Virus record (IMG/VR): IMGVR_UViG_3300043466_002346
Location: 1-26,768 of that record
Source of the DNA: a virus
Strand: one strand, 5' to 3'
Length of the DNA stretch: 26,768 nucleotides
Position numbers and translations under genes: made by a program
Shown: positions 1-19,628 of the stretch, piece by piece
Layout: each line of letters begins with the position of its first letter
How positions within the stretch are numbered: position 1 is the stretch's first letter
The notes under the pieces: model-generated
Databases searched by the model: none
Seen by the model: only the letters and a program-made list of their open reading frames with translations
What the model was told of the DNA's origin: nothing

Positions 1-239
1 ATCCGTGGGGACATGCGCCATTCTTCTAAGTTTTCGTCAGTAATCATCATTGGGGTTTTGATTGGCTTCTCGTCTTGCATCCTCTCGTAGTCATGCGGTT
101 CGGTGTTTTTCGCACTGACGATATACCAAAGTTTGCCGTCACCACCAGATACGGCTATGCTTCCCAAAAATTCATGCAGTCTTTCAGATTGGATTTCATT
201 ACCAATTTTTACTGAAGTGTCAATTTTTTTATTTTTCAT
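1..239 (-). CDS. Unknown phage protein, 3' end cut by window edge
   Basis: The ATG on the minus strand at 239 overlaps the stop of the upstream 1054-aa gene in an ATGA arrangement, so the two are translationally coupled. The frame stays open for 79 codons to the window edge. The visible protein starts MKNKKIDTSVKIGNEIQSER and contains a GGDGKLWYIVSAKN segment, then a charged stretch with TPMMITDENLEEW. I recognise no family. It is the last visible gene of the leftward head operon. It does not look like a major capsid protein start, although only a third or less of a typical gene may be visible. Confidence 0.7.
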   Translation of the reverse strand, partial: MKNKKIDTSVKIGNEIQSERLHEFLGSIAVSGGDGKLWYIVSAKNTEPHDYERMQDEKPIKTPMMITDENLEEWRMSPR

Positions 240-3200
240 CAGAAAGCCTCGTCAAAATCCCATTCTGGTTCTGGCAATTTTTCAATTGCTTCGTACAGTT
301 TATCTATTAGTTGCTGTGCTTGTGCTGTTATCTTTTTTGTTGTTCCCTTTTCGGCGCTTGTTGGGAGAACTTTTTCTAATAAATCTTTAATCTGGTTAAT
401 CTTAACCTCATCAATAACCCTTGAGCCGTTAAAATTTTCCAATAGGTAATTCAATGTTCCAGCCTCAGCAACACTTTCGTTCAGTATTGCAGAGCCGTAA
501 GTTGATGTTTGACCAAGTACCTCCAAAACTTCACTTGGGTCAACTCCGCCAGTGCTTCTTGTTGTAAAATCAAAACCAAATTGTGCTGAAACGGCATCTT
601 GTAGTTCTTTGACAAAAGAATCAAAATCTTGACCTAGCGCGTCAGATAGTGCTTTCTTCACATCGTCAGATGTTTCCATCCCATCTGGTCGCTTGAAGTT
701 GCCACCCCACCTTCCGCTTTGCATTGAAGATAATAAATTCCTAAACAAAGACTGTTTTTCTCCTACCCCATCAAAATAACTTCCTTCCATGAGGAGGTCT
801 TGCAATACCGATACCGAATCTTCTCTGTTAGTATTCTTTACATGAATTGCCTGATAGTTTACGAATGAGGCAAATCTTTCAGGGTAGTCATTGTATTTTT
901 GTCCAGATCGTACTCTTTCCATTTTTTTAAGTTCTTCTATTGGGGTGGCTGGATCAATTCCTTCGTTCTTTGCAAAAACTAACCCCAAATAACTATCCCC
1001 AATATTAGGACCAGCAGATAGTAATTGGTCAAGCATTGGCGGACTTCCAGCACCAATTTCAAAACCTAAATTTCTAGCAGTTTGGTCATAATGCACAAGA
1101 TGTAGTGCCTCGTGAACTGCAATTGTCAATTGGTTTGAGTCTGTTCCTTTTATTCTTGCAACATTTGGCAACATATCTCCGTCTTCTAAATTCTCTGCGC
1201 CAATTGTAGAATCAGCAAATAAAGCAGTAGGTGACATTTCGGTCAACATGTATATTCTTCCATCTTGGGTTGTTCTTCTCCCTGCGTATCCACCCCTAGC
1301 AATTGCAAATTCTGGTGTTTCAATACCAAGTGAAAATTTCCCCCTAAGCATTGGATATTTTTTTTGCATATCATCAATACCCTGTAGTATCTGTGCGTAG
1401 TTTTTTATCATGATTTTTCTAAGTTCTTGGGCGCCCTCTGGGGTTTTGAGTTTTTCTATAACTTCGTCAAATTCGTCTAATCTTTTTTGTATCATTCTGA
1501 TCTTTAGTGGATCGGTTTCTGCGTCAAGCATTTTCACATAAATATCTCTTTGATCATTTTCTTCGTTCAGCATGTAGGCAATCGCGTCGTCAATTTTTTG
1601 TGCCGTAGTTTTTTCTGTTGGGACTAGTTCCATTTTTTTCTCAATCGCATCAATATCAGACTCTGTTAAATCTCCAAGTTGACTAGGTCGGTATTCTGCA
1701 ACAAATGAGTCAAATGCTTCTGCCGCATCAATATTAAATTGTTCAGGATCAAAAGTGACCGCAACCAGCCCTTCTGCTTCCCTTGCACTAACAAGTGGTG
1801 CTCCTTCTGCGTCTAGAGCGAATGGGTTGACACCAGCAGTATCTTCACCAAACTCGCTGAGTATTTCTCCATCGGCAAGGTCTGGCGTGGGTATGTCTAG
1901 ATCAAGAGCAAAACTGTCAAGTTGTGATACTGGATCTTGCGGTGTGTAATCTGGGTTGGGGAACAGGGCATCTGCAACTTCTGTCGCAGATTTACTTTGC
2001 AGTTCTTTAATGCGACCAACAAGTGCGTCAATATCTGATTTTGACCTTGTGTCTTCATAGGTTGGATCCCAACCTGTTGGATTAGCGGGGATTATATTTC
2101 CATTAGCCATTGCATCTAATGTGTTTTGTGTTGAATACTTATCATCACTTGGTGGATACTTGTCGCTCATATCTTGAAGAATCTTTTTAAGTTTTTCCCC
2201 AAGCGCATCTGCATCTATTTCGCGAATATCGGCTAATGATTGTTCAAGTGCTTGAATTAGTTCTTCGCGATCTTTCTTTTTGTCAGGACTGGCATGCCTT
2301 TCAAAAAATGAATTAAGTGTTTCAAGGATTAGATTCCCTCTTTGCATACCTGCCGTATTACTATTGAGTCCTCCGTCTTCATTAAAGATGGGCAAAGTTT
2401 TATTATGAATAGAATTCCCGTGGTCAATTGGAGCAATTACTATATTCTCCCCATCATCCACCTTTAGGTAGTTGTGACCGTGCCTATCGGTATTCCCCAA
2501 CACCAGATCAAGAAGGACTGCGTGGGTCATTGAATCAACGGATGCATCTTTTCCTGCTTCTCTTTTGTCATAATCGTAACCAACAGATATTTCACCTTCA
2601 TATTTGTTGTGGATCAACTCTGTTACAATTCCGATACGGCCATCCATGTTCCTTACTGCACGCATGGAACTTGCTGGGTAACCAAATTCCTCAAGAACAG
2701 ATGCACTCAAAATTTCTGCACTCAATTCTGTCACTGGTGCAAAACTCATGTACTTAACACCGATCATCTGACCAGTTTTAGTATCAATGAACCGAGCCAT
2801 TCCGTGGACACCGCCACCATAGCCAGCCTCTTTAAATCTTCCACCACCATCACCAGAAATCACATTTTTCAAAATTGCATTCATCAAAAATTCATCTGGT
2901 ATTTGACTCAAATCTGCACCATCAGCCACGGCACTCACTGCATCGTCAGCATTTGTTATCCCAAGTGAATCATCAAACGCACCAATAGGAACATTGGATC
3001 CATCAGCATCTGGAATACCAAGATTCGCTGGCTTTTGATCAACCTTGTGTTTTGCAAGACGACCTTTCTTAAACCTAAAACCATCAACAAACCTCTGTAC
3101 AGCATTTACTGCTTGCGCAGCCAGAGTCTCGGCACTTGGAATCAGACAGTTAGACATTTGCATGTCGGTAAATTGGTTTGCGTTCGGGGTGCCTGGAGGA

Positions 3201-3403
3201 CAACGCAACTTGCCAGCAGAATCAACAATCACTCCAGCGGCGCGAGCAGCACGCATTCCAACCGACTGAAGTGCGTCATTGTCTTTTATCGTAGGTCCGA
3301 GAAATCCTTTGAATAAAAGGATGTTTTCGTGCACAGCAGAAACAGACTTCCTGTACCTCTGTACCCTCTCGTTTGCGTCAAAAGCACGAGACGATTTATA
3401 CAT
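239..3403 (-). CDS. Large virion-locus protein with PI3/4K/HipA-like kinase and HExxH zincin signatures
   Basis: This 1054-aa protein follows a good ribosome site (GGGGAG, 5 nt before ATG). Near residues 66-86 it has a KLRCPPGTPNANQFTD motif, which I associate with actinophage structural proteins. Residues about 200-335 read as a protein/lipid-kinase-like fold: a GVKY lysine (K217), a following acidic helix (E226/E230), a catalytic-loop motif GNTDRHGHN (D306, H308, N311) and IAPIDHG with a metal-binding D327. Such motifs occur in PI3/4-kinase, HipA and SCO1664-type families. Residues about 700-860 carry VHEALHLVHY (H764, E765, H768), a zincin motif, and YPERFASF with E842 as a possible third zinc ligand. 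A long acidic, helical region joins the two. Its place in the head operon suggests a packaged or injected protein that modifies and cleaves host targets; that role is inferred. Motifs are seen, activity is not proven. Confidence 0.7.
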   Translation of the reverse strand: MYKSSRAFDANERVQRYRKSVSAVHENILLFKGFLGPTIKDNDALQSVGMRAARAAGVIVDSAGKLRCPPGTPNANQFTDMQMSNCLIPSAETLAAQAVNAVQRFVDGFRFKKGRLAKHKVDQKPANLGIPDADGSNVPIGAFDDSLGITNADDAVSAVADGADLSQIPDEFLMNAILKNVISGDGGGRFKEAGYGGGVHGMARFIDTKTGQMIGVKYMSFAPVTELSAEILSASVLEEFGYPASSMRAVRNMDGRIGIVTELIHNKYEGEISVGYDYDKREAGKDASVDSMTHAVLLDLVLGNTDRHGHNYLKVDDGENIVIAPIDHGNSIHNKTLPIFNEDGGLNSNTAGMQRGNLILETLNSFFERHASPDKKKDREELIQALEQSLADIREIDADALGEKLKKILQDMSDKYPPSDDKYSTQNTLDAMANGNIIPANPTGWDPTYEDTRSKSDIDALVGRIKELQSKSATEVADALFPNPDYTPQDPVSQLDSFALDLDIPTPDLADGEILSEFGEDTAGVNPFALDAEGAPLVSAREAEGLVAVTFDPEQFNIDAAEAFDSFVAEYRPSQLGDLTESDIDAIEKKMELVPTEKTTAQKIDDAIAYMLNEENDQRDIYVKMLDAETDPLKIRMIQKRLDEFDEVIEKLKTPEGAQELRKIMIKNYAQILQGIDDMQKKYPMLRGKFSLGIETPEFAIARGGYAGRRTTQDGRIYMLTEMSPTALFADSTIGAENLEDGDMLPNVARIKGTDSNQLTIAVHEALHLVHYDQTARNLGFEIGAGSPPMLDQLLSAGPNIGDSYLGLVFAKNEGIDPATPIEELKKMERVRSGQKYNDYPERFASFVNYQAIHVKNTNREDSVSVLQDLLMEGSYFDGVGEKQSLFRNLLSSMQSGRWGGNFKRPDGMETSDDVKKALSDALGQDFDSFVKELQDAVSAQFGFDFTTRSTGGVDPSEVLEVLGQTSTYGSAILNESVAEAGTLNYLLENFNGSRVIDEVKINQIKDLLEKVLPTSAEKGTTKKITAQAQQLIDKLYEAIEKLPEPEWDFDEAF

Positions 3404-3415
3404 CGTCTCCCCTTA

Positions 3416-3682
3416 CTAGATCAGATCGTTGAGTTTTACGGAGTCTTCTTCTTCAGCAACATCGTCTTGCTTCTTGCGTACGCGCTTCTTCGGTTCTGAG
3501 GCAGTTTCTTCTTCAACAGCAACTTCTGCTACTGGTGTTTCAATTACTTCCTCTTTTACCTCAGCAACAACTTCAGTGACGACTTCTGCAACAGCCTCGG
3601 CTACAACTTCTGTTGCAACTTCTGGCTGTTCAACCTGACGGACGATGAATCCAGCGGCGTTTGGTTGGTTCTTCTTTTTCAC
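3416..3682 (-). CDS. Small V/A/E-repeat protein, function unknown
   Basis: This 88-aa ORF starts with GTG that overlaps the stop of the upstream gene (GTGA), and a strong GGAGGA site lies 7 nt upstream, so it is very likely translated. The middle (residues about 20-60) is a degenerate repeat of VAE, VTE and EVV units with no aromatic residues, followed by a basic KKRVRKK patch at 65-71 and an acidic tail. Such composition suggests an extended or helical, low-complexity scaffold, linker or inhibitor rather than an enzyme. Its position between the PepSY-like protein and the kinase/peptidase protein suggests a head-assembly role. A small scaffolding protein is one possibility but I see no specific homology. 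Confidence 0.7.
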   Translation of the reverse strand: MKKKNQPNAAGFIVRQVEQPEVATEVVAEAVAEVVTEVVAEVKEEVIETPVAEVAVEEETASEPKKRVRKKQDDVAEEEDSVKLNDLI

Positions 3683-5181
3683 TTTGATTCCTCCGAGTCA
3701 ATACCAGTTTCAATGGTAAGAAGTTCAAACTCCATGAGATCGCTCAAGAATGATTTTGCTTCTTCTCCATCAAGGCTCTTGCCTTCTGATGTCCATTCTT
3801 CTGGAATCATGTCTTCTTTTCCGAGAGCCATTGCACGCTTCTTAATGTGTGCCATAGCCTTTTCTTTGTCTTTTGCGCGACCATAAGCCATGATTGCGTT
3901 CTTGAGATCCGTCTCGTCTGCGATTGGGTATGAACCATCGTCCATTGCCTCACCGCTCTGTGACATCTTCTCACGCTGATCATCACTGTATGCACGCTTC
4001 AAAGCGAGGTCTGCAACTTCTGCATCAATGTCTGATGCTTCTTCTGCGTCATACTCGTCGTAGCCAAGAACTTCGCCGTCAATGCCTACGAATACATCGT
4101 AAGACTTTCCGTCTTTGCCCTCAATCTCAACTGCGTATGCGTCGTAACCTTCAAACATGTCCGCATCAACAGAGACAACTTCACCCTCAATTGACTTGGT
4201 GGCAATTGTTGCGGCTTCACCGAACGAGATAACTTTCTCGCCAGGAACCGAAGCAACTTCACCGATCAACTCTTCATTGAGAAGGTGCCAGCCCATGCAC
4301 TCGCCACTTGTTCCATCAAAGTAAGCCTCAATTGGCTTTCCATCTTTGCGCTGAACATCAACAACAAAAATGTCTGTCTCGTCTGCGTAACCCGAGTCAA
4401 GAACTTTTCCTGCGAACATGTCTTCTGCAATTCCTTCAACTTCAAGAAGTGATGGAAGATCGCCGTGTGGTTCGCAACCGCCTGGGCACTGTGCACAGAT
4501 GTCTGAACCGCCAGCATAAACCTTGCGCTCAATTGCGCAAACAAAAGCCTGCTCATCGTAGTCAAGTGACTTAACGCCCATTGACTCCATGCGCTTTGCG
4601 CGTGCCTTCTTGCGACGCTTCATCATGCCTTCAAGTTCGTCCCACATCTTGTCTTCTTCGGCATCAAGCATTTCTGCATCTGCTGGAAGTTCGTCATCTT
4701 CAGGTGACATTGAAGCCATATCTTCTTCTGCTTCTTTTTCTTCGTCGTAGTCATCTGGATCGTCTTCGTCGTCCATTGCGTCATCAACACCCATGGCAGC
4801 CATTGGCATTGGCTTCTTTGGTGCCACTGGCATCATGCCCTTTTCATCGTCTGCCGAAACCCAACCATCTTCTTCGTTGCCTTCGTATTCAGACTTAATT
4901 GCAAGTGCAGGTGCTCCGCACTTACCGCAAGTCTTCGCGCCTGGCTTGTAGCCGCACTCTGACATCTCTAGACCTTTTGCACATTTAATTGTGCCGTCAG
5001 CCATTAGTTCTACTGTTGGTGTCTTAGCCATGTTGTTTGACTCCTTGTAGTGCATCGCCTTGACGAGACACCCTGTTGGATTAGGGCAACCAGCACAGGG
5101 TTTCATGCGTTTTTCGCCCGAAACCATGCACTGATATTTTGCTGATTTTTGTGGTAAACCTGTATTAGAAGTATAACTCAT
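3679..5181 (-). CDS. Cys-rich acidic head-locus protein with two PepSY-like repeats and a C-terminal DUF6582-like motif
   Basis: The 500-aa frame has three cysteine clusters that could bind zinc: C18/C29/C32/C38, C67/C76/C85/C88 and C215/C229/C232/C236. Residues 132-180 are almost all acidic. Residues about 244-298 and 316-377 look like two PepSY domains: each has a helix (for example FGEAATIATKSIEGEVVSVD) then a two-strand unit with DGK and a closing DG.xxGY or GW. Residues 399-463 (REKMSQSGEAMDDGSYPI then HIKKRAMALG and IPEEW) resemble a short module often found next to phage prohead proteins (DUF6582-like). The start is uncertain: ATG at 5031 (residue 51) has AAGGAG 9 nt upstream, whereas ATG at 5181 has no clear site but would keep the first Cys cluster. 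PepSY domains elsewhere inhibit peptidases; a similar role here is only a guess. Confidence 0.75.
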   Translation of the reverse strand: MSYTSNTGLPQKSAKYQCMVSGEKRMKPCAGCPNPTGCLVKAMHYKESNNMAKTPTVELMADGTIKCAKGLEMSECGYKPGAKTCGKCGAPALAIKSEYEGNEEDGWVSADDEKGMMPVAPKKPMPMAAMGVDDAMDDEDDPDDYDEEKEAEEDMASMSPEDDELPADAEMLDAEEDKMWDELEGMMKRRKKARAKRMESMGVKSLDYDEQAFVCAIERKVYAGGSDICAQCPGGCEPHGDLPSLLEVEGIAEDMFAGKVLDSGYADETDIFVVDVQRKDGKPIEAYFDGTSGECMGWHLLNEELIGEVASVPGEKVISFGEAATIATKSIEGEVVSVDADMFEGYDAYAVEIEGKDGKSYDVFVGIDGEVLGYDEYDAEEASDIDAEVADLALKRAYSDDQREKMSQSGEAMDDGSYPIADETDLKNAIMAYGRAKDKEKAMAHIKKRAMALGKEDMIPEEWTSEGKSLDGEEAKSFLSDLMEFELLTIETGIDSEESK

Positions 5182-5230: not shown

Positions 5231-8200
5231 TTAAGCATTTTCAATAACATCAATAACAGATGTCAATGCCTCAATTGCATCATCGTGGTGGTAACCGAGA
5301 TCGTAGAGTTCTACTCCATCTTCATTGGCAAGTGCTTCAATGCCGTAGTAGTCAAGAACAGGGTCAAGAAGCGACTTAATTTCGTAGACCGACATATAGT
5401 CAGACTGAACTACGAAAAGACCGTCTTTTTGCTCTTGTTCCATGCCACCAGAGTTAATGACCTCTTCAAGCATTCTGTATGCATCACGCAATTTGTTCAT
5501 ATTTCGGGTGCTGAGAACTCGTCCAGCCTTAACCTCAATATCTTCATCAAGTTGCTTCATCATTCCAGAAAGAGCAGAAACGATTGAAGCGATCATTGCA
5601 TTATGACCTTCACCGCCTCCACCACAACCGCAGTCATCTTTGTCGCCACGGGTGAATGGCTTTTCAACGACTTCATCGTCATCATCTTCGCCTTCCATGA
5701 CCCAGTTATCGTCGCCAGTCATGTAAGAGACGAATTCTGGCTCGTCATCCATAAACTTACGGAGTGCCATGTAAGCCATTTCATTGGCTTTTTCTTCGTC
5801 ATCAGTCTCAAAGTCTGGCTCTGATTGGTTCTCTGACTCAAGACGCTCGGCGAACTGCTCCATCATCTGCATGTTCTTCTCGTCATCACCAGTGTCTGCA
5901 AGCAGATACTTGAGTTCATCAGCCGAAAGGGTCAAGAGTGATTTGCCGTCTCCGAGTCGTGCAAGACGCTCATTCCACTGCGAATCGCTCCAGACTGAAC
6001 CGTCTCTAATGCCCTTGAGTTTCTTGCGACAGTTCTTCATGCCTGGGTGGTGGCAACCTTCGTTCGGCCAGAGACCAGTTGTTTCGTGATGTAGCCAAGC
6101 GCAAATATTGCTCAATGGATAAAGTTCTGGATGGTTGGCGAGGATTACTCGGCAACGACGGAATCCGCCTGGCTTCTTCATGATTGGACGCCAGTAGCGG
6201 AGAAGTTTCTCAAGGTTGCCACGGCGAGGACCGTATCCACGGGTCTGTGCTGTAATAATTTCTTGAGGAATAATCCCGCCCAGTGGGTCAGCCTTTTCTG
6301 GCGACTTTGGCTTTACGCCGAAAGGAATTTGTGGATCTTCATCCATTCCGTAGCGATCTTCGTAACGGCGTTCAGCATCAGAACCACTTGGGACATTGTC
6401 GTTGTTCATGTTCAAATAAACCGTTTGTGGCTTAACCCTTGTTGGGTCACCAAACATGAATTCGCCATTCTCAAAATGATAAGAAACACGCAATGTCATC
6501 TGACCCTTTTCACCACGGTGATCAAATACAACGCTATTAGCGTCTGACTCACGAACACGGACAGCACCACCAAAGCGCTTTGAAAGAGCGTAAGGGAGAT
6601 TTGCCTGACGACCCATCTTTGGGTTCCGCGCTTGCACGCCATCATCTTCGCCATATCCTTCGCCTTTTTTCCGTAAAGCGTTAGAGGTCGGTGGTTGGCT
6701 TGCTCGTCGGAGTCTTGCAGTATTTTGCGCAAGAATTCGTTCACGGGCTACTTGACCCGCTGAACGGTCAACGCTGTCAGGGCGACGACGATCATTTGCA
6801 CCTGTTCTTGTGTCAGGACCATATGACTGAAGCGTGCCATCACGCTGTTCTCTTAGGTATTCACTATCCTTTGGCGGTCGTCCAGCGCGATCCTGCAACC
6901 GCCCGTCAGCGCCTTCTGTAATGTATCCAGGCTTGTATTCAGTCCGACTAGCCCTATCAGCCGAATCGGGTTTTCTATTTGGGGCTGAACGGTCTGTTCT
7001 GTCAGCACCCCTACGGTCATCTGCACCAGTTGGTCGTGTGTCACGGCGTCCAACTCCTGCACGGACTGGTTGATCTCCGCCCGTTGAAGGAATTGGGCGA
7101 CCAACTTGTCCTACACCTGCGCGTACTGGCTGATCCCCACCAGTTGATTGACGGTCAGGGCGAGTTCCAACACCTGCGCGTACTGGCTGGTCACCACCTG
7201 TTGAGTTACCTACACCACGGTTCGCTTGAACTCGTTGTGCGGAATCGCCCATTCGGTTCGGTGCCGAACGGTCTGTTCTGTCAGCACCCCTACGGTCATC
7301 TGCGCTCGTTGGTCTGCGTGAATCAGTCTGTCCACGGCGAGTAGCAGCGTCTGTTGCCTGTGGTGTTCCGCGATTAGCAGCGACTCGTTCTGCTGAGTCA
7401 ATTCGTCGTGCTGGTGGTGAATTGTCAATACGATCTGCTGGCTTGCGATCAGCGGCAGATGATCGTGCGGCTTGACCAGCAAGACGGTCGGATTGTGCTT
7501 GGTTACGGCGTGCGCGTGTTGCATCAGTATTCGCACGACCGATTTCAGCCTGTGCTTGTGCTCCACGACCAACTGTCTGCTTGTCAAATGCGGCACGGGC
7601 ACGGGCGCGTGCATTGCGTTCTGCTTCAGAGCGGTCTTCCACTCGGGCGTTTGGTTTGATTCCTTGTGCGCGAAGTTGACCACGAACAAAGCGACGACGC
7701 TCTTGCTCGTATTTTCCGCCAGCAGCACTTTGACGCTTATATGGAACTCGTTGCTCCTGTGGGGTGCCGTCAAAGATCATTCCGTCACCATCACTGTCAA
7801 CGACGTCCATTGAACCTTGCGCAGTTGCGCCTGGTGCTCCAGTGCGTTGACCAACAGTTCCTGCTTGCTGACCAACAGTTGCTTTTGTTCCCATTTCGTC
7901 CGCCTTGATTGAAATTGTTCCAGTCAACTGGTTTGCACCATGGAGAACTGGAGATACTTCGTAAAGTTCAACTGACTTCAAGATGTTTGCTTGGCGCTGT
8001 GGATCAAAGTCGGCATCAAGTGTCTTGTAGCCGATTGACCACTCTTGCTCTTCGCCAAAGAACGAAACATCAGCGAAAGCCTGACGACCACGCTCTGATT
8101 TCAAGTTGAACTGAACGCGTGCATAGACACCGCCAATTCCAGCACGCTTCATCTTCATTGGAAGGCGTGGGTCAGATGCTGGGACTTCATAAATCTCAAG

Positions 8201-8419
8201 AACTTTGCCGATTGGCTCATTCCAGTTGTGACCCCAGACAACGCGTGGCTTGCGACGCTTTAGGCTTTCATTAAATGCGCCAGATACGATGATGTCACCA
8301 ACGGAGTCCTTGTTGCCAATACCTGCAACAAAAGCCTCAACAATTCCAAGCGCTTCGTCAATGGTTACTTGACCTTGTAGCGCCTTATATTCTTGTGCGT
8401 CATCATATTGTGTTGGCAT
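5231..8419 (-). CDS. HK97-type prohead protease fused to Arg-rich repeat linker and C-terminal modules
   Basis: The 1062-aa protein has AAGGAG 5 nt before its ATG. Residues 1-170 match the S78 prohead protease family, which cleaves scaffold and capsid proteins during head maturation: VVWGHNWNEPIGK supplies H64, EWSIGY supplies S128, and ELYEVSPVLHGAN supplies an acidic residue near 151-154. Residues 208-220 (DSDGDGMIFDGTP) look like a calcium-loop or linker motif. Residues about 230-580 are disordered, Arg/Ala/Asp-rich and contain repeats. Residues about 729-804 form a Cys/His-containing module (RRGNLEKLLRYWRP, then WLHHETTGLWP, C756/C773/C789/C797), a type I recall from actinophage head proteins. 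Residues 850-960 are acidic and end in a CGCGGGG turn. The C-terminus (VLSTRNMNKLRDAYRMLEE) resembles an end helix of other prohead proteases. The usual family length is about 150-250 aa, so this is a large fusion that may itself be processed. Confidence 0.85.
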   Translation of the reverse strand: MPTQYDDAQEYKALQGQVTIDEALGIVEAFVAGIGNKDSVGDIIVSGAFNESLKRRKPRVVWGHNWNEPIGKVLEIYEVPASDPRLPMKMKRAGIGGVYARVQFNLKSERGRQAFADVSFFGEEQEWSIGYKTLDADFDPQRQANILKSVELYEVSPVLHGANQLTGTISIKADEMGTKATVGQQAGTVGQRTGAPGATAQGSMDVVDSDGDGMIFDGTPQEQRVPYKRQSAAGGKYEQERRRFVRGQLRAQGIKPNARVEDRSEAERNARARARAAFDKQTVGRGAQAQAEIGRANTDATRARRNQAQSDRLAGQAARSSAADRKPADRIDNSPPARRIDSAERVAANRGTPQATDAATRRGQTDSRRPTSADDRRGADRTDRSAPNRMGDSAQRVQANRGVGNSTGGDQPVRAGVGTRPDRQSTGGDQPVRAGVGQVGRPIPSTGGDQPVRAGVGRRDTRPTGADDRRGADRTDRSAPNRKPDSADRASRTEYKPGYITEGADGRLQDRAGRPPKDSEYLREQRDGTLQSYGPDTRTGANDRRRPDSVDRSAGQVARERILAQNTARLRRASQPPTSNALRKKGEGYGEDDGVQARNPKMGRQANLPYALSKRFGGAVRVRESDANSVVFDHRGEKGQMTLRVSYHFENGEFMFGDPTRVKPQTVYLNMNNDNVPSGSDAERRYEDRYGMDEDPQIPFGVKPKSPEKADPLGGIIPQEIITAQTRGYGPRRGNLEKLLRYWRPIMKKPGGFRRCRVILANHPELYPLSNICAWLHHETTGLWPNEGCHHPGMKNCRKKLKGIRDGSVWSDSQWNERLARLGDGKSLLTLSADELKYLLADTGDDEKNMQMMEQFAERLESENQSEPDFETDDEEKANEMAYMALRKFMDDEPEFVSYMTGDDNWVMEGEDDDDEVVEKPFTRGDKDDCGCGGGGEGHNAMIASIVSALSGMMKQLDEDIEVKAGRVLSTRNMNKLRDAYRMLEEVINSGGMEQEQKDGLFVVQSDYMSVYEIKSLLDPVLDYYGIEALANEDGVELYDLGYHHDDAIEALTSVIDVIENA
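6987..7303 (-). repeat. 38-bp exact direct repeat pair within the protease linker
   Basis: The same 38 bases, beginning GAACGGTCTGTTCTGTCAGC, occur at 6987-7024 and 7266-7303. They encode two copies of ADDRRGADRTDRSAPNR in the disordered linker. Identity at DNA level, not only protein level, suggests recent duplication or recombination. Confidence 0.9.
7049..7204 (-). repeat. Three tandem STGGDQPVRAGVG repeats in the protease linker
   Basis: Protein residues 406-457 contain the 13-residue unit STGGDQPVRAGVG three times, starting at residues 406, 425 and 445, with short variable spacers. Two DNA copies share ACACCTGCGCGTACTGGCTG; the third has diverged. This is a low-complexity linker expansion. 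Confidence 0.9.
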
Positions 8420-8507: not shown

Positions 8508-10721
8508 TCAATCAAACCTAAACCTCAGACGACAGCGACAATTAAATGTCAGTGCTGGTGGCGCGAGTGGGTCGCCAGGAAACCTGAGTGCAATGCCATC
8601 AACCATGAATCCGTCGCCAAAATCAACAGTCTTTCCCTCAAGGAATTTGTGCGTGTTTCGTACTCGCGAGTCTTTTCTGGTCAACCATGTCTTAGTTACT
8701 CCAGCGTCAAGGCTCTTGCCTGCCATGAATACTCCTGCGTTGTATGAAGTTTGCGCTTCATGTTCAGCCATTGCACGGCGTCGTTTGGAAAGAAGGTTTA
8801 CGAAAATTGCGATCAAAGCAGCCCGTAGAAGGAGTGACTTTTCTTCTTCTTCGCCAACCGCAAGGGCAACGAGCACAGCGGCAGATATTTCCTCAAGGGT
8901 TGATTGGTTTGCTTGTTGCATGCGAGCCAACTGCTCTGCGGCAAACTTCTGCATTTCTTCCTCGTCTATTTGGGCAGGAAGACTTGAGCGAGATGAAACA
9001 TATTCCTTAGCCTCGGTGTAAATGGAGGTAATAATTGGGGTTAGGTCGTCTGCTAGTTGCTTATCCCAAATCTCTTTATCAAAGATCATTTCGGCGGTAA
9101 GTATTCCAGACGAAAGAGCCTTCATCCCTCGTTTGCCAAAAGCCTTCTCTAGAACAACTCGTTGCTGTCTCTCAAAGACTCTTTCTAGTGCACGATCCAT
9201 TATTTCTGTCCACCTATCGGTGTCAGAGTCCGCTTTTGTCTCAACTTCTTCTAAAAACTTGCGTTGCATTTGATGTTGGATTTCCTCAAATGCTGAAAGT
9301 TGCTGGTCTGGAGTCATCGCTCCAGTTTGCGGAGATGTTGCTTCTGGAACTTCAATTGGTGTTGGTGGTGCTGGCTGTGGCATTTCGGGAGCGCCAGGAA
9401 CTGGAGGTAATCCACCAGGAACTGCGTTCGGATCTGCTGGAGCACTTTGATCAACACCTGCCATATCAACGGGCATTTGTTCTTCAGGCTTGAATGGCTT
9501 TTCGGTGTTAGCGATTGGCGTGAGGTTTGGATTAGAGAGAAGCGAGTCAGCAAGTTCTGATTCAACTTTCTTTCTTCCAGACGCTGTTCGGTATTCATTC
9601 AAACTAATCAGACCCTGTTGGAATTCGTCCATCACATAGCGTTCACGCTCTTGCTTGGCAAGAATAAGAATTGGAATGTCGTTGGTATCAAAGTCAACAT
9701 AATACTTATCGTCAAGTTCATCAAAAGCGCGAGCAAGAGTATGTAAGTGAGGAGCCATTGTCTCCATCCAAAAAACTCTGATCTCTTCGCTTGCGTTACT
9801 GAAAGTTCTTCCAGAAGCATTACCAATTACCGACTCTGGAACACCAAACGCTGCGAATATTTCATTCTTCTGAATCTCTCGCATTTGCACATAAGCGGCA
9901 TCGCGAGGTGATGCAGATGTATCAACATAATCAACGCCATCGCTTGACGCAATAACTGTTGTAGATCCAGCACGCGAAAGATTTCCACGGAACCTGCTCT
10001 TTAACTCTTGCTTGTCATCATCTTCCATTTCACCACGGACTACTAGTAATCCGCCTGGGCGACCATCGTTGAGAAGGTAGTTTCGGTTATAAATCTTTGC
10101 AAGGTTTTCTAATTCAATTGCAATTCCTGCTGATTCCATTGGCGTCATTGAAAGGTATGGATCAAGCGGGTGTGGTCGGCGAATCCAGCAAACATCATCT
10201 GGCTTAAGCGTGAACTTTGTTCCGTTACGCATATCTACTTCGTATCCCGAAATAAATTTCTTCGGATCTGGGATTGGCGCAGTGTGTTGCGGTGGGAGAA
10301 TTTGAAGAGCGATTATGCTTCCGTCACGACCTCGCACTTTTTCAATAAAGACACCACGGGTGCTCATTAAGAGTTGAGCAGAAACCCTGTATCTAAAAGC
10401 AAAAGAGTTTTCGCCATCGTTTGATTTAGAGTTAAAAATCTCAAGTAGTGGTTTATTTGCCTTGGTTAGTTCTCCACGCTGATCGTTGTCTTTACGGAGA
10501 ATAACTGGAAGGCGTGCTTGGTTTCCTGCGATTGCATCTATGCAACGGAATACCCAAGTAACTCTTTGCATTCCCTCGCGGTATGCACGCTCAATGTCCC
10601 AGCCATCTTTGTATGGTTTTCCTGCGCGTGCCGCGTCAAAAGCAACTGGGGCGCCTGGGTTTGACATGGCTTTTTCTGAGCCATTCTGCAAACTTTTATT
10701 TGAACCGCTATTCCACGCCAT
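8508..10721 (-). CDS. Portal protein fused to MuF-like minor head domain
   Basis: The 737-aa protein begins with an HK97 gp3-like portal (residues about 40-400), the ring at the capsid vertex through which DNA passes. Diagnostic stretches are TWVFRCIDAIAGNQARLPV, LLMSTRGVFIEKVRG, LNDGRPGGLLVV, and IFAAFGVPESVIGN with SNASEEIRVFWMETM. A Pro-rich linker (about 415-470) leads to a helical region and a C-terminal MuF-like domain (about 640-737), with KTWLTRKDSRVRNTHKFLEG and a final FNCRCRLRF. MuF domains are usually a separate minor head protein and may carry toxins; here the fusion ends without one. The ATG overlaps the stop of the upstream 58-aa gene by one base (TAATG), which fixes the start. 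Confidence 0.92.
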   Translation of the reverse strand: MAWNSGSNKSLQNGSEKAMSNPGAPVAFDAARAGKPYKDGWDIERAYREGMQRVTWVFRCIDAIAGNQARLPVILRKDNDQRGELTKANKPLLEIFNSKSNDGENSFAFRYRVSAQLLMSTRGVFIEKVRGRDGSIIALQILPPQHTAPIPDPKKFISGYEVDMRNGTKFTLKPDDVCWIRRPHPLDPYLSMTPMESAGIAIELENLAKIYNRNYLLNDGRPGGLLVVRGEMEDDDKQELKSRFRGNLSRAGSTTVIASSDGVDYVDTSASPRDAAYVQMREIQKNEIFAAFGVPESVIGNASGRTFSNASEEIRVFWMETMAPHLHTLARAFDELDDKYYVDFDTNDIPILILAKQERERYVMDEFQQGLISLNEYRTASGRKKVESELADSLLSNPNLTPIANTEKPFKPEEQMPVDMAGVDQSAPADPNAVPGGLPPVPGAPEMPQPAPPTPIEVPEATSPQTGAMTPDQQLSAFEEIQHQMQRKFLEEVETKADSDTDRWTEIMDRALERVFERQQRVVLEKAFGKRGMKALSSGILTAEMIFDKEIWDKQLADDLTPIITSIYTEAKEYVSSRSSLPAQIDEEEMQKFAAEQLARMQQANQSTLEEISAAVLVALAVGEEEEKSLLLRAALIAIFVNLLSKRRRAMAEHEAQTSYNAGVFMAGKSLDAGVTKTWLTRKDSRVRNTHKFLEGKTVDFGDGFMVDGIALRFPGDPLAPPALTFNCRCRLRFRFD

Positions 10722-10897: not shown

Positions 10898-10971
10898 TCA
10901 GACCATCACCTTAGCAAATGAGAGACCTAATAAATACTACATTATGTATGTACCTATTTTTGCGGAGACAC
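10898..10971. promoter_or_regulatory. Divergent intergenic region between portal and terminase operons
   Basis: These 74 bases separate two operons pointing away from each other, so both promoters must lie here or inside the adjoining coding starts. The region is AT-rich (CCTAATAAATACTACATTAT) and contains the palindrome TACATTATGTA at 10938-10948, which could be an operator. I see no clean -35/-10 pair on either strand. The palindrome overlaps the frame of the alternative upstream terminase start at 10918. Confidence 0.45.
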
Positions 10972-12276
10972 ATGGCTGACTGGAAACAAATTTATGATTA
11001 CCTTCAACCGAAGGAACCTTTGTTTTGTCCAGAGGAACCATCCATCACTCAAAAAGTCTTTTTGAGATCATACGCTATTGAAGGACTCTTCGGTGGAGCA
11101 GCGGGTGGAGGAAAATCCTCCGCTTTGCTTATGTCCGCATTGCAGTATGTGGATGTACCTAATTACTCAGCAATTCTGTTCCGCCGTACCTACGCTGACT
11201 TAGCCCTACCTGGTGCTTTGATGGACCGTTTTCGTAGTTGGATATCTAATTATGATGATGTCCACTGGAACGCTAATAGTTATGTGGCTACATTTCCATC
11301 TGGCGCTCGTATTTCGTTTGGTTATTTAAATAACACAAATGACTATTTACGATATAAAGGTTCTGAATTTCAATTCATTGGGATGGACGAGGTCACAGAA
11401 ATCAGGGAAAGTGACTACCGATATATGTTCTCCCGTTTGCGCAGACCAGCAAGCGGACCTTTGTCAAAAGTCCCTTTGAGGATGAGATCAGCATCAAACC
11501 CAGCACCCAATTGGGTTCGGCAACGATTTATCGTTGAGGGCAAGCAGGAGAGCCGAGTTTTCGTACCGTCCTTTTTGACGGATAACCCAGGAATTGATGC
11601 AGAATCCTACCGACAGGCTCTTTCCGCGCTTGACCCGATTGAGCGTAGGCGCTTGGAAATGGGTGACTGGTGGGCAACCACTTTGGGCACATTATTTGAC
11701 AGAACCGACTTTGTGATCATTGACCCGACCGATGTTCCTCAAATAACCAGTTCAGCCCGAGCCGTAAGGTTTTGGGACTTAGCGGCGACCGAGCCTCATT
11801 CTGGAAACTTGAACCCCGACTGGACGGTTGGGACGCTGATGCTTTTTGATCAGGGAATTGCCTATGTAATGGATGTCCGAAAGATTAGGGCTAAGTCGGA
11901 CAAGGTTGAAGCCTTCATTTCCCAAACCGCCATGGAAGACGGCAAGGGTGTGGCGATACGAATGGAGCAAGAGCCAGGATCGTCGGGTAAGGCATTGATT
12001 GACCAGTACGCGAGGTATGTGGTTCCTGGTTGGGACTTGATGGGTATTCGTTCAACTGGCGACAAATTAACCCGAGCCAGACCCTTCGCAGCCGCTGTAG
12101 CCAATGGCAATGTTCGCCTAGTTCGTGCGTCATGGCTCTCTGACTGGCTTGACGAATTCTCATCATTTCCTGAAGCGTGTGACCACGACGACCAAGTTGA
12201 CTCTGCGGTTGGGGCTTTTACATTTTTAACTGGTTTGGGGTTGCCTCAGAGGAGTAGAGCCACTATCATCGTCTGA
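10972..12276 (+). CDS. terL: Terminase large subunit
   Basis: This is the packaging motor ATPase and nuclease that cuts concatemers and pumps DNA into proheads. With the start at 10972 it has 434 aa. Walker A is GGAAGGGKS (residues 41-49), Walker B FIGMDEV (D139, E140). The RNase H-like nuclease shows D269 in VRFWDLAAT, E332 in IRMEQEPGSSGKALID, and DHDDQVD with D407/D410. I chose ATG 10972 because GGAG lies 4-5 nt upstream; an in-frame ATG at 10918 would add 18 residues of unlikely hydrophobic sequence and has no ribosome site. No small terminase subunit is recognisable beside it. It is divergent from portal, whereas the usual order is terminase then portal on one strand. Confidence 0.95.
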   Translation: MADWKQIYDYLQPKEPLFCPEEPSITQKVFLRSYAIEGLFGGAAGGGKSSALLMSALQYVDVPNYSAILFRRTYADLALPGALMDRFRSWISNYDDVHWNANSYVATFPSGARISFGYLNNTNDYLRYKGSEFQFIGMDEVTEIRESDYRYMFSRLRRPASGPLSKVPLRMRSASNPAPNWVRQRFIVEGKQESRVFVPSFLTDNPGIDAESYRQALSALDPIERRRLEMGDWWATTLGTLFDRTDFVIIDPTDVPQITSSARAVRFWDLAATEPHSGNLNPDWTVGTLMLFDQGIAYVMDVRKIRAKSDKVEAFISQTAMEDGKGVAIRMEQEPGSSGKALIDQYARYVVPGWDLMGIRSTGDKLTRARPFAAAVANGNVRLVRASWLSDWLDEFSSFPEACDHDDQVDSAVGAFTFLTGLGLPQRSRATIIV

Positions 12277-15042: not shown

Positions 15043-16176
15043 GTGACAAGACAACGGCTATTTCTTGATACATCATGCGTTGACGCGGCGCGTGAGCGCT
15101 TGCGCCATGTGTACGACACATTTGACACCGTCTGTATTCAATTTTCGGGTGGCAAAGACTCAACTGCTGTTCTTTATCTTGCAAAGGAAATCCACGAAGA
15201 GCGCGGTCTTGGAAAAGTAAAAGTAATTTTCCGAGATGAAGAAATGGTTAGTCCAACCGTTGTTGCTTTTGTTGAAAAAGTTCGCAACTATGACTGGGTT
15301 GATATGGAGTGGTACTGCCTTCCATCTGGTCAAGAAGTTTGGGTTTTGGGGCGTCGTGAGTATGTACTCCTTTGGTCTGGTCAGAGAAAAGAAGATGGCA
15401 GGCTCGTCAGGGATATGCCAGAGTGGGCTATCCGTGCAGAACATTTTGGATTAGACCCAAATAAACCTGCGCCAAAACTTGTGGACTATTACACGATGCA
15501 GGGCAAGCAGGGAAGAACCGCTTTTGTTACTGGCGTTAGAGCAAATGAATCAATGATCCGTTATCGCTCTTGTGTTCAGAAACTACACGAGAATTACATC
15601 GTTACCCCGTTCATGCTTTCAAAGTCAATACCTTTAAAGTTTGCAAAGGTAATTTATGACTGGACAACCGAAGATGTAATGAAGTTTATTATTGATGAGC
15701 ACAAAGCAGAGTATTGCGAGTATTACGACTTGGCTGAATTAACAGGTAGCAACAGTCGCGTTGGAATCCCACTACACTCTGTGGCTATTCGCAGGATTGG
15801 TGATGTTGTTGTTACTGAGCCAGAATTCTACGATCAGTTGGTTAGGTGTTTCCCACAAATTGATGCACAGCGCAGATACTGGGCTGACTTTGATATTGAG
15901 AGTCTGATCTCTGGATATGCATCAGAAGGTTGGGACGGAGTAAAAGATTGTATTGACGATCACATGCTAACTCCAGGAATGCACCGCGATGCGATGAAGT
16001 TTGCATCTGAGTTCAGGAAGAAACGAGCAGTTGACCCGTACGGTTTTCCGATTGAGTACTTAGTGCGAACACTTCTGCTGAATGAGTTTCACCAATCAAC
16101 TCCAACGCCAGTAGGACCAAAGACTCGCGCTCACACCATGAGAATGAAGGCAATTGAAGCGGGCGAGGATTACTAA
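15043..16176 (+). CDS. PAPS-reductase-like PP-loop protein (IbrA/DndC-like)
   Basis: The 377-aa protein has the PP-loop FSGGKDSTA (residues 34-42) that binds ATP, a following IFRDEE motif, GVRANESMIRYRSC (164-177), and YDWTTEDVMKFI (205-216), the order seen in IbrA and related phosphoadenosine-phosphosulfate-reductase-like proteins. True CysH proteins carry a C-terminal ECG(I/L)H motif; I do not see one, so sulfate assimilation is unlikely. The start is GTG, with no ribosome site; no in-frame ATG precedes the PP-loop. The next gene is ParB-like, matching the IbrA/IbrB pairing reported in bacteria and prophages. What chemistry it performs is unknown: nucleotide or nucleic-acid thiolation and regulatory roles have been suggested for relatives. 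Confidence 0.85.
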   Translation: MTRQRLFLDTSCVDAARERLRHVYDTFDTVCIQFSGGKDSTAVLYLAKEIHEERGLGKVKVIFRDEEMVSPTVVAFVEKVRNYDWVDMEWYCLPSGQEVWVLGRREYVLLWSGQRKEDGRLVRDMPEWAIRAEHFGLDPNKPAPKLVDYYTMQGKQGRTAFVTGVRANESMIRYRSCVQKLHENYIVTPFMLSKSIPLKFAKVIYDWTTEDVMKFIIDEHKAEYCEYYDLAELTGSNSRVGIPLHSVAIRRIGDVVVTEPEFYDQLVRCFPQIDAQRRYWADFDIESLISGYASEGWDGVKDCIDDHMLTPGMHRDAMKFASEFRKKRAVDPYGFPIEYLVRTLLLNEFHQSTPTPVGPKTRAHTMRMKAIEAGEDY

Positions 16177-16221
16177 ATGGCTTTCAATACGAACAAACAG
16201 GAAGGCGGTTGGTGGGAATGA
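16177..16221 (+). CDS. Possible 14-codon coupling ORF between the PAPS-like and ParB-like genes
   Basis: ATG lies directly after the TAA of the PAPS-like gene, with GAGG 8 nt upstream, and the ORF (MAFNTNKQEGGWWE) ends in TGA that overlaps the ParB-like ATG at 16218 (ATGA). The arrangement would deliver ribosomes to the second gene. It is very short and could be chance; the two Trp codons at the end are unusual. Confidence 0.35.
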   Translation: MAFNTNKQEGGWWE

Positions 16222-16766
16222 AAATCACTCAACTGATGGCTAAATCACTAAAGGCTCCCAAATGGGGCGCAACTAGCATCTTGAAGCCTGACAAGGCTTT
16301 GCTCCGTCTATCAATGGTTGAGTCTGGATGGTTGCAACCGCTTGTTGTGAGAATGAGCGACCTCACGATTATTGACGGGTATCACAGGTGGATGATTGCC
16401 CAAGAAGATGAGAAATTCATCAAACGCCACGGTGACTGGATTCCTGTTGTTTTCCATGATGTGGACGAAATTGACGCCATGGTTCTACACATTCGGCTCA
16501 ACCGTTCCCGTGGAAATGTCAATTCGTATGCCTTGAGTAAATTAATCAAGAGAATCGTGTCATCGGGGAAATATAACGAAAATGATTTGAAAAATGTCCT
16601 TTTGATGCACGACGATGAGATAGACCTGCTTATGTCAAGCGGTCTATTGAAAATGAAGAACTGGAAACAGTATGAGTATTCCCGTGCTTGGGTTCCGATT
16701 GAGGTTCCAAAAGGCGAGGAAGTTGGAACTTCAATTATTGAGAGACCACCTAATAAAGACCGATAA
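16218..16766 (+). CDS. ParB/Srx-like protein (IbrB-like)
   Basis: The 182-aa protein shows the ParB/sulfiredoxin fold core: SMVESGWLQPLVVRMSDLTI, IIDGYHRW (the GxxR-type motif), a PVVFHDVDE strand, and LHIRLNRSRG (the EN..R-type motif). It then has a helical domain (SKLIKRIVSSGKYNENDL). ParB-fold proteins bind DNA or CTP, and in some families cut DNA. Proteins of this type occur next to PAPS-reductase-like genes (IbrB/IbrA). I chose ATG 16218 over TTG 16209 because it overlaps the small coupling ORF and AAGGCGG lies about 9 nt upstream. It is not likely a plasmid partition ParB: no ParA is present. Confidence 0.85.
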   Translation: MKITQLMAKSLKAPKWGATSILKPDKALLRLSMVESGWLQPLVVRMSDLTIIDGYHRWMIAQEDEKFIKRHGDWIPVVFHDVDEIDAMVLHIRLNRSRGNVNSYALSKLIKRIVSSGKYNENDLKNVLLMHDDEIDLLMSSGLLKMKNWKQYEYSRAWVPIEVPKGEEVGTSIIERPPNKDR

Positions 16767-16767
16767 C

Positions 16768-16796
16768 TTATAAAACACATAAAAATGTGGTAATCT
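16768..16796 (+). promoter_or_regulatory. Candidate promoter of the neck/tail operon with internal dyad
   Basis: TTATAA (16768-16773), a 17-nt spacer and TAATCT (16791-16796, with TG just upstream) could be -35 and extended -10 boxes. The spacer contains CACAT-AAAA-ATGTG (16776-16789), an operator-like dyad. It is the longest gap before the structural genes, and the next gene has an AGGGAG site. The -35 is weak. Confidence 0.4.
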
Positions 16797-16826
16797 CGTT
16801 GAAGCCTTTATTTTCAGGGAGCATTG

Positions 16827-17237
16827 ATGCCACGACCTCGTTTTACGGAAGATGTAGAGTTCCGCACAGGATTGGATTCAAGGGATCGCCTTGTCCGCAA
16901 CGCACGCTTTGTTAAACGACCACGCGTCATTAATGGTCGTACCGTTCCAGGAAACGCCGCCTACTATCGCCGTCGTGAAGCAGAATTGCGTGCAGAGCGT
17001 CGTCAACAGCGAGCCGCTCTTGCTGGTGCTCGTTCAGCAGCCCGTCGCACCCGTGGTGCAGAACGAACAGCGAGCAACGCCGCTCGTACTGGACGAAACG
17101 CAGGCAACCCACGGACTGTTACGCCTCGGTCAACTGCTCCAAGTCGTACTCGTCGTGGTGGAGTTAGGGGTGCGCTTGCCCGTGTTGCTAGAGGCGCTGC
17201 TAACGCACTTCAACGACGACGCAACCGCCGTAGTTAA
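16827..17237 (+). CDS. Highly Arg-rich basic protein, function unknown
   Basis: The 136-aa protein has about 37 arginines (27%), few acidic residues and many Ala, Asn and Thr, mostly after residue 45. The N-terminus (PRPRFTEDVEFRTGLDSRDR) is more ordered. AGGGAG precedes the ATG at 16827, which is preferred over an upstream TTG at 16824. It is the first gene of the neck module, directly before the head-tail connector. Its composition is like histone or protamine-type proteins, so binding to packaged DNA or to the acidic portal/connector surface is plausible. A shifted-frame ORF over the same bases is an artefact of the CGT-rich sequence. Confidence 0.75.
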   Translation: MPRPRFTEDVEFRTGLDSRDRLVRNARFVKRPRVINGRTVPGNAAYYRRREAELRAERRQQRAALAGARSAARRTRGAERTASNAARTGRNAGNPRTVTPRSTAPSRTRRGGVRGALARVARGAANALQRRRNRRS

Positions 17238-17250
17238 TCGGAGATAAGCC

Positions 17251-18123
17251 ATGTTGGTTTCTGTTTCAGATCTAGCAACCTATATGGACATCAAGTTTTC
17301 TAACAGGCAGGAAGATGCTGCCCAAATGGTTCTTGAAGGTCTACAAAGTGAACTTGAGGCTTACCTTCGTCGCCCCATAGAAGTTGCCTCATTCACTGAA
17401 GAATATGTTCTTGAATCAGATCATATTGGTCTTCCTTTGGGTTCAACAATCTTCAACGATTTTTATGCAACATCAGATGTTGACCCTGTTGGACTTGTTA
17501 GTTACGGAACTCCACCTCCAACTATTTATTTCAACAATTCACCAGTTGTTTCTGTGCAAAGCGTAACCGTAAGGAATTTGTCCGAGAATCTTCGGGTTCT
17601 TGGTGAGGCGATAAAAAGGACAGCCACTATTACTTCGGTAACTGTTGCTGGAACCACTGTTACATACACGGCTGCTAATCACGGTTTCACGGTAGGGCAA
17701 AACATTACGGTAACTGGTTTAAGTACTGCTTCTTTGAACCTTAAGTCAAATGTCATCACATCAGTTGCTACTAACACTTTTGCAGTCACACAGAGCGGTC
17801 TCACCGCAGGAACATTCGCTCAAACTGGAACATGCCTTGCGTCGGGTTTTGACTATACGGTACGAAAATTTGGAATTGACTTCTATCGCGGTTCTGCAAG
17901 CGACATAGTACAAGTTACATATACCGCTGGAATCGCTGGTGCAAATACACCGATGTTTAAACTTATGATCCTTCGCGCGGCTTCAAGAGAAGTACAGAAT
18001 ATGCACGACGATGTTGTTGGCATCAAAGATCTGTCTGCTCGTGAAGTAGCAATTGCTGAAGTTGGATTCTTGGAAAAAGAACTCATGGCTGTGAAACGGT
18101 GGCGCAGGAATAGGATTGCGTAA
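17251..18123 (+). CDS. Head-tail connector (gp6-like) with inserted beta-rich domain
   Basis: The 290-aa protein begins MLVSVSDLATYM and continues with a helical N-terminus (AAQMVLEGLQSELEAYLRRP), a beta region, and a helical C-terminus (FKLMILRAASREVQNM). This is the layout of HK97 gp6-type adaptors, which bind under the portal and join the tail. Between residues about 124 and 196 sits an extra Thr/Val/Gly-rich segment (TVTYTAANHGFTVGQNITV and onwards) typical of small phage beta-sandwich or decorating repeats seen mainly in tail proteins. Removing it joins VRNLSENLRVLGEAIKR to SGFDYTVRKFGIDFYRG, as in normal connectors. GGAG precedes the ATG and the stop overlaps the next start. Confidence 0.75.
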   Translation: MLVSVSDLATYMDIKFSNRQEDAAQMVLEGLQSELEAYLRRPIEVASFTEEYVLESDHIGLPLGSTIFNDFYATSDVDPVGLVSYGTPPPTIYFNNSPVVSVQSVTVRNLSENLRVLGEAIKRTATITSVTVAGTTVTYTAANHGFTVGQNITVTGLSTASLNLKSNVITSVATNTFAVTQSGLTAGTFAQTGTCLASGFDYTVRKFGIDFYRGSASDIVQVTYTAGIAGANTPMFKLMILRAASREVQNMHDDVVGIKDLSAREVAIAEVGFLEKELMAVKRWRRNRIA

Positions 18124-19569: not shown

Positions 19570-19575
19570 GTAATG

Positions 19576-19581: not shown

Positions 19582-19628
19582 CGCTGTAAGGACTTTCGTA
19601 CCATTATCTGAGACACGGAGGGTGTTTA

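What the first reader, a model, noticed from the sequence alone, without database searches (positions are those of the whole stretch)
239..3403. One phage protein carrying a kinase-like signature and a zinc-protease signature
The 1054-aa protein has GNTDRHGHN plus IAPIDHG (D306, N311, D327) with K217 upstream, as in PI3/4K-, HipA- and SCO1664-type kinases, and VHEALHLVHY (H764-H768) with a candidate third ligand at E842, as in zincins. I know of no named phage family with both in one chain. Its position in the head operon suggests it is packaged and delivered, so the phage may modify and cleave host targets at entry.
Basis: partly seen in the sequence, partly recalled or inferred. Interest (0 to 1): 0.9.

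Follow-up and report, generated by a model that had tools for sequence, protein, structure and literature searches.

The report
Phage effector with swappable enzyme warheads
A virus of bacteria, probably actinobacteria, makes one large protein with a kinase and a zinc protease; in related viruses the same front end carries other enzymes, each with its own small companion gene, so this looks like an exchangeable weapon system built alongside the virus head.

Summary
The 1054-aa protein (window 239-3403, minus strand) has a PI4K/HipA/Fam20-like kinase (K217, E230, D306, N311, D327 invariant in 12 aligned sequences) and a zincin-type HEALH (H764-E765-H768 invariant in 9). The proposed third ligand E842 is not conserved; the invariant glutamates are E976 and E980. 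The zincin fold itself has only weak support.

The larger finding is the system around it. Residues 1-95, a strongly conserved Cys-containing module, recur in about 80 uncultured phage contigs, fused to different cargos: kinase, zincin, both, DUF3626, others. Cargos are exchanged between phages with identical or 99.6%-identical portals, and the downstream partner gene goes along. Cargo types have their own small downstream gene: zincin partner in 8 of 8 zincin genomes and 0 of 22 others; kinase partner in every kinase genome examined. This protein has both partners. Further kinases plus a degenerate kinase follow in tandem, up to the major capsid gene.

Best reading: a head-operon, polymorphic-toxin-like effector with two warheads and two cognate immunity or chaperone proteins. 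Packaging, injection, activity and immunity are inferred. New variant of a known kind (polyvalent/MuF-type phage effectors).

The parts
239..3403 (-). Two-warhead effector gene, 1054 aa (P0001)
   Evidence: near-identical copy L001/L042
3119..3403 (-). N-terminal carrier module, residues 1-95, with RCPPGTPNANQFTDMQMSNC
   Evidence: A1: 55-77% identical while cargos differ; about 80 loci; predicted disordered, mostly pLDDT below 50
2159..2911 (-). Kinase domain, about residues 165-415
   Evidence: PF00454 E=1.8e-4; A2 profile at 162-414, E=1e-88, built with this sequence included; AF2 and Foldseek
2810..2824 (-). Glycine-rich loop G194-G198
   Evidence: G194 and G196-198 invariant in the 12-row alignment
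2753..2755 (-). K217, predicted ATP-anchoring lysine
   Evidence: invariant in the 12-row alignment
2471..2497 (-). Catalytic loop GNTDRHGHN (D306, N311)
   Evidence: invariant D306, R307, H308, N311
2417..2437 (-). Metal-binding motif IAPIDHG (D327)
   Evidence: invariant D327
254..1801 (-). Zincin-type metallopeptidase region, about residues 535-1050
   Evidence: A3 profile over 531-1051, built with this sequence included; AF2 pLDDT 77, pTM 0.81
1100..1114 (-). HEALH active-site motif, H764-E765-H768
   Evidence: invariant in the 9-row alignment; on one predicted helix
464..478 (-). ESVAE, E976-E980: likely third zinc ligand region, replacing E842
   Evidence: E976, A979, E980 invariant; similar YGxTNxxExxAE motif in phages Cantare gp11 and GMA6 Orf14
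3..239 (-). Zincin-partner gene (S2 family), 79 of 94 codons inside the window; start codon meets the effector stop
   Evidence: S2 profile found in 8 of 8 zincin genomes, 0 of 22 others; the full copy in L042 E=1.8e-19
3416..3682 (-). Small 88-aa gene upstream, acidic, function unknown
   Evidence: a small ORF sits in the same place in most relatives
3679..5181 (-). Conserved 500-aa operon neighbour; PepSY-like hit at the cut-off
5231..8419 (-). S78 prohead protease with long extension
   Evidence: PF04586 E=3.8e-11, phrog_80 E=4.1e-26
8508..10721 (-). Portal-MuF fusion protein
   Evidence: PF04860 E=3.8e-50, PF04233 E=1.4e-8
10918..12276 (+). Terminase large subunit, divergent from the head operon
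   Evidence: phrog_979 E=1.5e-102

Best explanation
This is the two-warhead form of an exchangeable head-operon effector. Residues 1-95 are a carrier module, probably a short sorting or packaging tag. The kinase and the metalloprotease are cargo, and each has a cognate small protein encoded just downstream (zincin partner first, kinase partner second) that probably holds it inactive, or chaperones it, in the producing cell. The effector is probably made with the capsid proteins, loaded into the head, and delivered into the next host with the DNA, where it phosphorylates and cleaves host proteins. Shown here: the domains and invariant catalytic residues, the conserved carrier, the cargo exchange, the cargo-specific partners, and the operon position. 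Inferred: enzymatic activity, packaging, delivery, targets, and the partner's inhibitory role.
For: Carrier 55-77% conserved with different cargos. Cargo swaps: L059 (DUF3626) and L060 (kinase) have identical portals; L043 (kinase) and L055 (another cargo) share 94-96% DNA identity up to residue ~93, nothing in the cargo, and about 94% after it; L055 and L069 have 62%-identical portals but 94%-identical cargo. Partners: zincin-S2 8/8 versus 0/22, kinase-S1 in every kinase genome examined. All 33 kinase genes classed as slot c/d and examined have a small ORF at their 3' end, mostly 82-117 aa, whereas most degenerate-kinase genes in slot b lack one. Purifying selection on cargo and partners, dN/dS about 0.03-0.22. 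Position between prohead protease and major capsid gene.
Against: No virion proteomics and no activity data. The zincin region has no Pfam, NCBIfam or PADLOC match, no PDB Foldseek match (best E=0.73) and only weak SprT-like hits in the viral library. The kinase model has modest confidence (pLDDT 59). The partner-cargo association has few independent contrasts (3 of 3 for zincin; 4 same, 0 opposite, 2 undecided for kinase), too few for significance once ancestry is counted. The partners match no known immunity family. Only 12 of the 33 slot-c/d partners are recognised as the kinase-partner family.
Confidence: 0.6

Rival explanations
1. A head-assembly enzyme: the kinase and protease act inside the producing cell or procapsid on capsid, scaffold or sibling proteins and are not delivered.
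For: Same operon as prohead protease and capsid gene; polyvalent-protein peptidases are proposed to process their own chain (PMC5512222).
Against: A core assembly step should not tolerate replacement by unrelated cargos in phages with identical portals, or a carrier without enzyme cargo (L081).
Confidence: 0.15
2. An intracellular toxin or superinfection-exclusion system expressed in the infected cell, with immunity partners, and not packaged.
For: Effector-small-partner pairing and apparent orphan partner genes resemble polymorphic toxin loci; PADLOC PDC-M03A candidate-defence kinase hit E=6.3e-6.
Against: Placement in the head operon and one carrier shared by all cargos argue for a structural destination.
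Confidence: 0.15
3. The small partners are packaging chaperones or adaptors, not immunity proteins; the rest as in the best explanation (a variant of it, not exclusive of it).
For: Cargo-specific partners are also expected of chaperones; no immunity-family match.
Against: Degenerate kinases in slot b still carry a Cys motif but mostly have no partner, while active kinases do, as expected of protection against activity.
Confidence: 0.35
4. The HEALH region is a helical domain that only resembles a zincin and is not a protease.
For: No library hit; no PDB fold match.
Against: H764, E765, H768, E976 and E980 are invariant at 22-27% overall identity; predicted strands, HExxH helix and later Glu helix match the zincin core; small SprT-like domains among the viral hits.
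Confidence: 0.12

Closest known systems
Polyvalent proteins of phages and conjugative elements (Iyer et al. 2017, PMC5512222)
   Same: Large multi-domain phage proteins, zincin as the commonest domain, kinases also reported, proposed delivery with DNA; some relatives here also carry KTSC, RNase_T and ParB-like domains
   Different: Their kinases are a Ser/Thr/Tyr-kinase group lacking the C-terminal subdomain, mostly Verrucomicrobia-Chlamydia and Bacteroidetes; here a PI4K/HipA/Fam20-like DRHxxN...D kinase. MPTase-PolyVal (PF18818) does not match. I saw no cargo-specific partner genes in the passages read.
MuF polymorphic toxins of temperate phages (Jamet et al. 2017, PMC5576092)
   Same: Head-module proteins with a conserved carrier and exchangeable toxin ends, proposed delivery by phage (abstract)
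   Different: The carrier here is a Cys-containing module, not MuF, which is fused to the portal instead; host group differs; not found in bacterial genomes
HipA / CtkA / Fam20 / PI4K kinases; SCO1664 family (TIGR03843)
   Same: DRHxxN catalytic loop and following Asp; PI4KII-alpha and CtkA among the top folds; Fam20 and CtkA among profile hits; weak TIGR03843 hits in relatives
   Different: All family scores weak; fused to a phage carrier
PDC-M03A candidate phage-defence kinase (PADLOC)
   Same: Kinase region 215-336 matches, E=6.3e-6
   Different: Here encoded by a phage head operon; system membership not tested
Head-operon HExxH proteins of Brevibacterium phage Cantare (gp11) and Gordonia phage GMA6 (Orf14)
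   Same: Similar operon slot downstream of the portal; HExxH plus YGxTNxxExxAE motif
   Different: No carrier module or kinase match; profile similarity limited to 25 columns, E=0.005, probability 7%

Membership tests
PI4K/HipA/Fam20-like (atypical) kinase | Gly-rich loop, Lys, Glu, catalytic Asp-Asn, metal-binding Asp | tested here: met
   all invariant in the 12-row alignment
PI4K/HipA/Fam20-like (atypical) kinase | Library score above the curated threshold | tested here: inconclusive
   PF00454 21.9 vs cut-off 27.1 here; 27.2-30.8 in L065, L004, L083
PI4K/HipA/Fam20-like (atypical) kinase | Kinase fold | tested here: met
   Foldseek top 50 all kinases, best E=5.7e-4; modest model quality
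Zincin metallopeptidase | HExxH plus downstream third ligand | tested here: met
   H764/E765/H768 and E976/E980 invariant in the 9-row alignment; E842 not
Zincin metallopeptidase | Zincin fold match | tested here: inconclusive
   topology consistent, PDB search negative, weak SprT-like viral hits
MPTase-PolyVal (PF18818) | Match to the curated model | tested here: not met
   no match at E<=10 in six records including L042's
Polyvalent protein | Multi-domain protein encoded in a phage | tested here: met
   kinase plus zincin in a head operon
Polyvalent protein | Delivered into the host with the DNA | not testable with these tools
   needs virion proteomics or delivery assay
Polymorphic toxin system | Constant N-terminus with exchangeable C-terminal domains | tested here: met
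Polymorphic toxin system | Cargo-specific adjacent partner gene | tested here: met
   S2-zincin 8/8 vs 0/22; S1 in every kinase genome examined
Polymorphic toxin system | Toxicity neutralised by the partner | not testable with these tools
   no assay
MuF toxin | MuF domain in the toxin chain | tested here: not met
   Phage_Mu_F lies in the portal protein, not in P0001

The most novel reading that the evidence does not exclude
The virion carries a whole set of injected kinases (plus a degenerate kinase) and a protease, each swappable and each active enzyme paired with an immunity protein, so the phage both reprograms or disarms hosts at entry and protects cells it already occupies from rival phages of the same kind: a phage-borne polymorphic toxin-immunity arsenal.
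Probability: 0.3. Interest if true: 0.9.

Novelty: new variant of a known kind. Interest (0 to 1): 0.78.

Why it matters
As far as I know, injected phage effectors have mostly been described one at a time. This family shows, by natural recombination, where the carrier ends and the cargo begins, and which small protein goes with which enzyme. It gives a testable kit: a candidate phage packaging tag, several predicted enzymes aimed at probably actinobacterial cells, and candidate protein inhibitors of kinases and zinc proteases. No relative of the effector was found in the cultured-phage collection searched, so it also points to a poorly described lineage.

Tried and rejected
E842 as third zinc ligand: rejected, not conserved. 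Filing the zincin under MPTase-PolyVal: rejected, no match. Filing the protein as a MuF toxin: rejected, MuF is in the portal. Cultured-phage relatives of the carrier or kinase by tblastn: none. Bacterial or prophage copies: none in two genome scans, so the host stays unidentified. Homology of the zincin to Cantare and GMA6 proteins beyond the Glu-helix motif: not established. Literature searches for this kinase-carrier arrangement found nothing specific in the held library. An R-partner dN/dS pair was computed in a wrong frame and is not used. One family search of relatives' zincin domains failed on coordinates and was not repeated.

Full report
Observation. The ORF lies on the minus strand of 239-3403 and encodes 1054 aa; read on the plus strand the interval is full of stops. 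All named residues are present at the stated positions. Shuffling the protein gives HExxH in 1.4%, DRHxxN in 0.28%, and the spaced DRHxxN...Asp-motif pattern in 0 of 20,000 cases. A near-identical contig, IMGVR_UViG_3300042557_000834 (L001/L042), carries the same gene and the sequence beyond the window's edge. The window is itself a virus record of 26,768 bases.

Kinase. Pfam gives PI3_PI4_kinase at E=1.8e-4 (21.9 bits, cut-off 27.1) over 289-335; relatives L004, L065 and L083 pass the cut-off. The 12 aligned sequences share invariant G194, G196-198, K217, E230, D306, R307, H308, N311 and D327. The AF2 model of residues 1-430 is modest (pLDDT 59, pTM 0.56), better in the kinase core; its 50 listed Foldseek matches are all protein or PI kinases, including PI4KII-alpha and CtkA. 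A profile search of PDB sequences gives Fam20-type kinases and CtkA at weak E-values. PADLOC gives PDC-M03A, E=6.3e-6. Substrate, protein or lipid, cannot be told.

Metalloprotease. Nine aligned sequences, 22-26% identical to the window's, keep D755, H764, E765, H768, H771, E976 and E980. The AF2 model of residues 500-1054 is fairly confident (pLDDT 77, pTM 0.81): strands, then a helix with HEALH, a long helical insertion, then a helix with E976 and E980, which fits the core described for polyvalent-protein zincins (PMC5512222). PDB Foldseek finds nothing; the viral library gives only weak SprT-like zincins among many long helical matches. MPTase-PolyVal does not match. The assignment therefore rests mainly on invariant residues and predicted topology.

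Carrier and cargo. Residues 1-95 carry RCPPGTPNANQFTDMQMSNC and are 55-77% conserved in relatives whose remainder differs. A scan with this module gave 80 loci. Cargo includes kinase only (L002, L004, L082, L083, L090), zincin only (L003, L024, L027, L036), kinase plus zincin (this protein and L065), DUF3626 (L023, L030), a ParB-like region (L007, L019), another unnamed cargo, 'R' (L034, L039, L055, L058, L069), and giant proteins up to 3435 aa, some with RNase_T or KTSC domains. The carrier is mostly predicted disordered although strongly conserved, as expected of a short binding or sorting signal; that role is inference.

Cassette exchange. On a portal tree of 27 phages the cargo type changes at least 14 times. 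L059 (DUF3626) and L060 (kinase) have identical portal proteins. L043 (kinase) and L055 (cargo R) are 94-96% identical in DNA up to about residue 93 of the effector, unrelated through the cargo and nearly all of the partner gene, then about 94% identical again. L055 and L069 have portals 62% identical but cargo 94% identical over 526 aa; the zincin cassette of L061 and L073 is 87% identical in DNA amid roughly 65-76% flanks. These are horizontal swaps; in L043/L055 and L059/L060 the partner gene is exchanged with the cargo. Kinase, zincin and partner genes are under purifying selection, dN/dS about 0.03-0.22.

Partner genes. Immediately after the effector, usually overlapping its stop, lies a small gene whose family follows the cargo. 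A profile of three zincin partners finds a partner in all 8 zincin genomes and none of 22 others; the window's P0006 is one (full copy in L042, E=1.8e-19). Kinase partners occur in all kinase genomes examined, plus two genomes (L055, L058) that seem to keep an orphan copy. The two kinase-plus-zincin genomes have both, zincin partner first. Fisher p is about 1e-6 (zincin) and 6e-6 (kinase) without correction for ancestry; independent contrasts agree where they differ, but are few. The partners have no convincing Pfam match.

The tandem series. Operon order is conserved: portal-MuF, S78 protease, a ~500-aa protein, usually a small gene, the variable effector, partner(s), then slot b (about 430-740 aa) and slots c and d (about 840-1800 aa). 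Where the contigs reach far enough, the series ends near the major capsid gene (phrog_10, E=1.6e-66). Slots b-d bear related Cys motifs (such as RCPAGFEFGGRFTD and RCPVGTRYGGQITDRFGRNC). Slots c and d end in kinases with DRHxxN and the metal Asp; slot b, where it has a kinase-like region, has lost them (for example DRS..T..S). All 33 genes classed as slot c/d and examined have a small ORF at their 3' end, mostly 82-117 aa, recognisably of the kinase-partner family in 12. Seven degenerate-kinase genes have no small ORF within 350 bases and three more only have ORFs that look like alternative frames inside the next gene. That active kinases have partners and most degenerate ones do not favours a protective role. 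Iterated profiles can drift, so membership of distant kinases was checked by catalytic residues.

Known relatives. The portal resembles those of actinobacterial phages at about 40% identity. Brevibacterium phage Cantare gp11 and Gordonia phage GMA6 Orf14, in a similar slot, have HExxH and the YGxTNxxExxAE motif; Streptomyces phage Gilgamesh has a 4624-aa protein close behind its portal-MuF. An actinobacterial host is likely but not shown; the carrier and the slot c/d module gave no relatives in the collection of about 85,000 bacterial and archaeal species genomes.

Verdict. The two-signature protein is real and the kinase reading sound; the zincin reading is probable. Its interest lies in the exchangeable carrier-cargo-partner design. 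It works like a polymorphic toxin or polyvalent effector; membership of MuF toxins and MPTase-PolyVal failed. Packaging, injection, enzyme activity and immunity are untested.

Noticed in passing
L042:13769-15913 and 15894-20330; L142:1115-4441: Further Cys-motif proteins follow in the same phage: a 714-aa protein with a degenerate kinase-like end and two long proteins ending in kinases with intact motifs.
   Followed up: partly
L048:10001-13086 and L007:5432-8517: A kinase cargo is split: carrier plus first kinase part plus a ParB-like region in one ORF, rest of the kinase (catalytic Asp changed, ERDxxN) in an overlapping 253-aa ORF, partner gene kept.
   Followed up: partly
L055:12332-12592 and L058:12333-12584: Shortened kinase-partner genes remain beside a non-kinase cargo, like orphan immunity genes.
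   Followed up: partly
window 5231-8419: Prohead protease with a several-hundred-residue Arg/Asp-rich region containing STGGDQPVRAGVG repeats and a Cys-rich CRVILANHPELYPLSNICAWLHHETTGLWPNEGCHHPGMKNC segment, which is a separate gene in L092 and L099.
   Followed up: no
window 15043-16176: Phosphoadenosine phosphosulfate reductase gene (phrog_2302, E=8.4e-77), an auxiliary metabolic gene between recombination and tail genes.
   Followed up: no
N-terminal regions of slots a to d, e.g. P0001 K32-G33: A Lys-Ala/Gly motif, usually after an aromatic residue, precedes the Cys module in most slots; a possible prohead-protease site or docking peptide.
   Followed up: partly
L139:17697-31571 (Streptomyces phage Gilgamesh gp48): A 4624-aa unannotated protein close behind the portal-MuF fusion, with no Pfam match.
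   Followed up: partly
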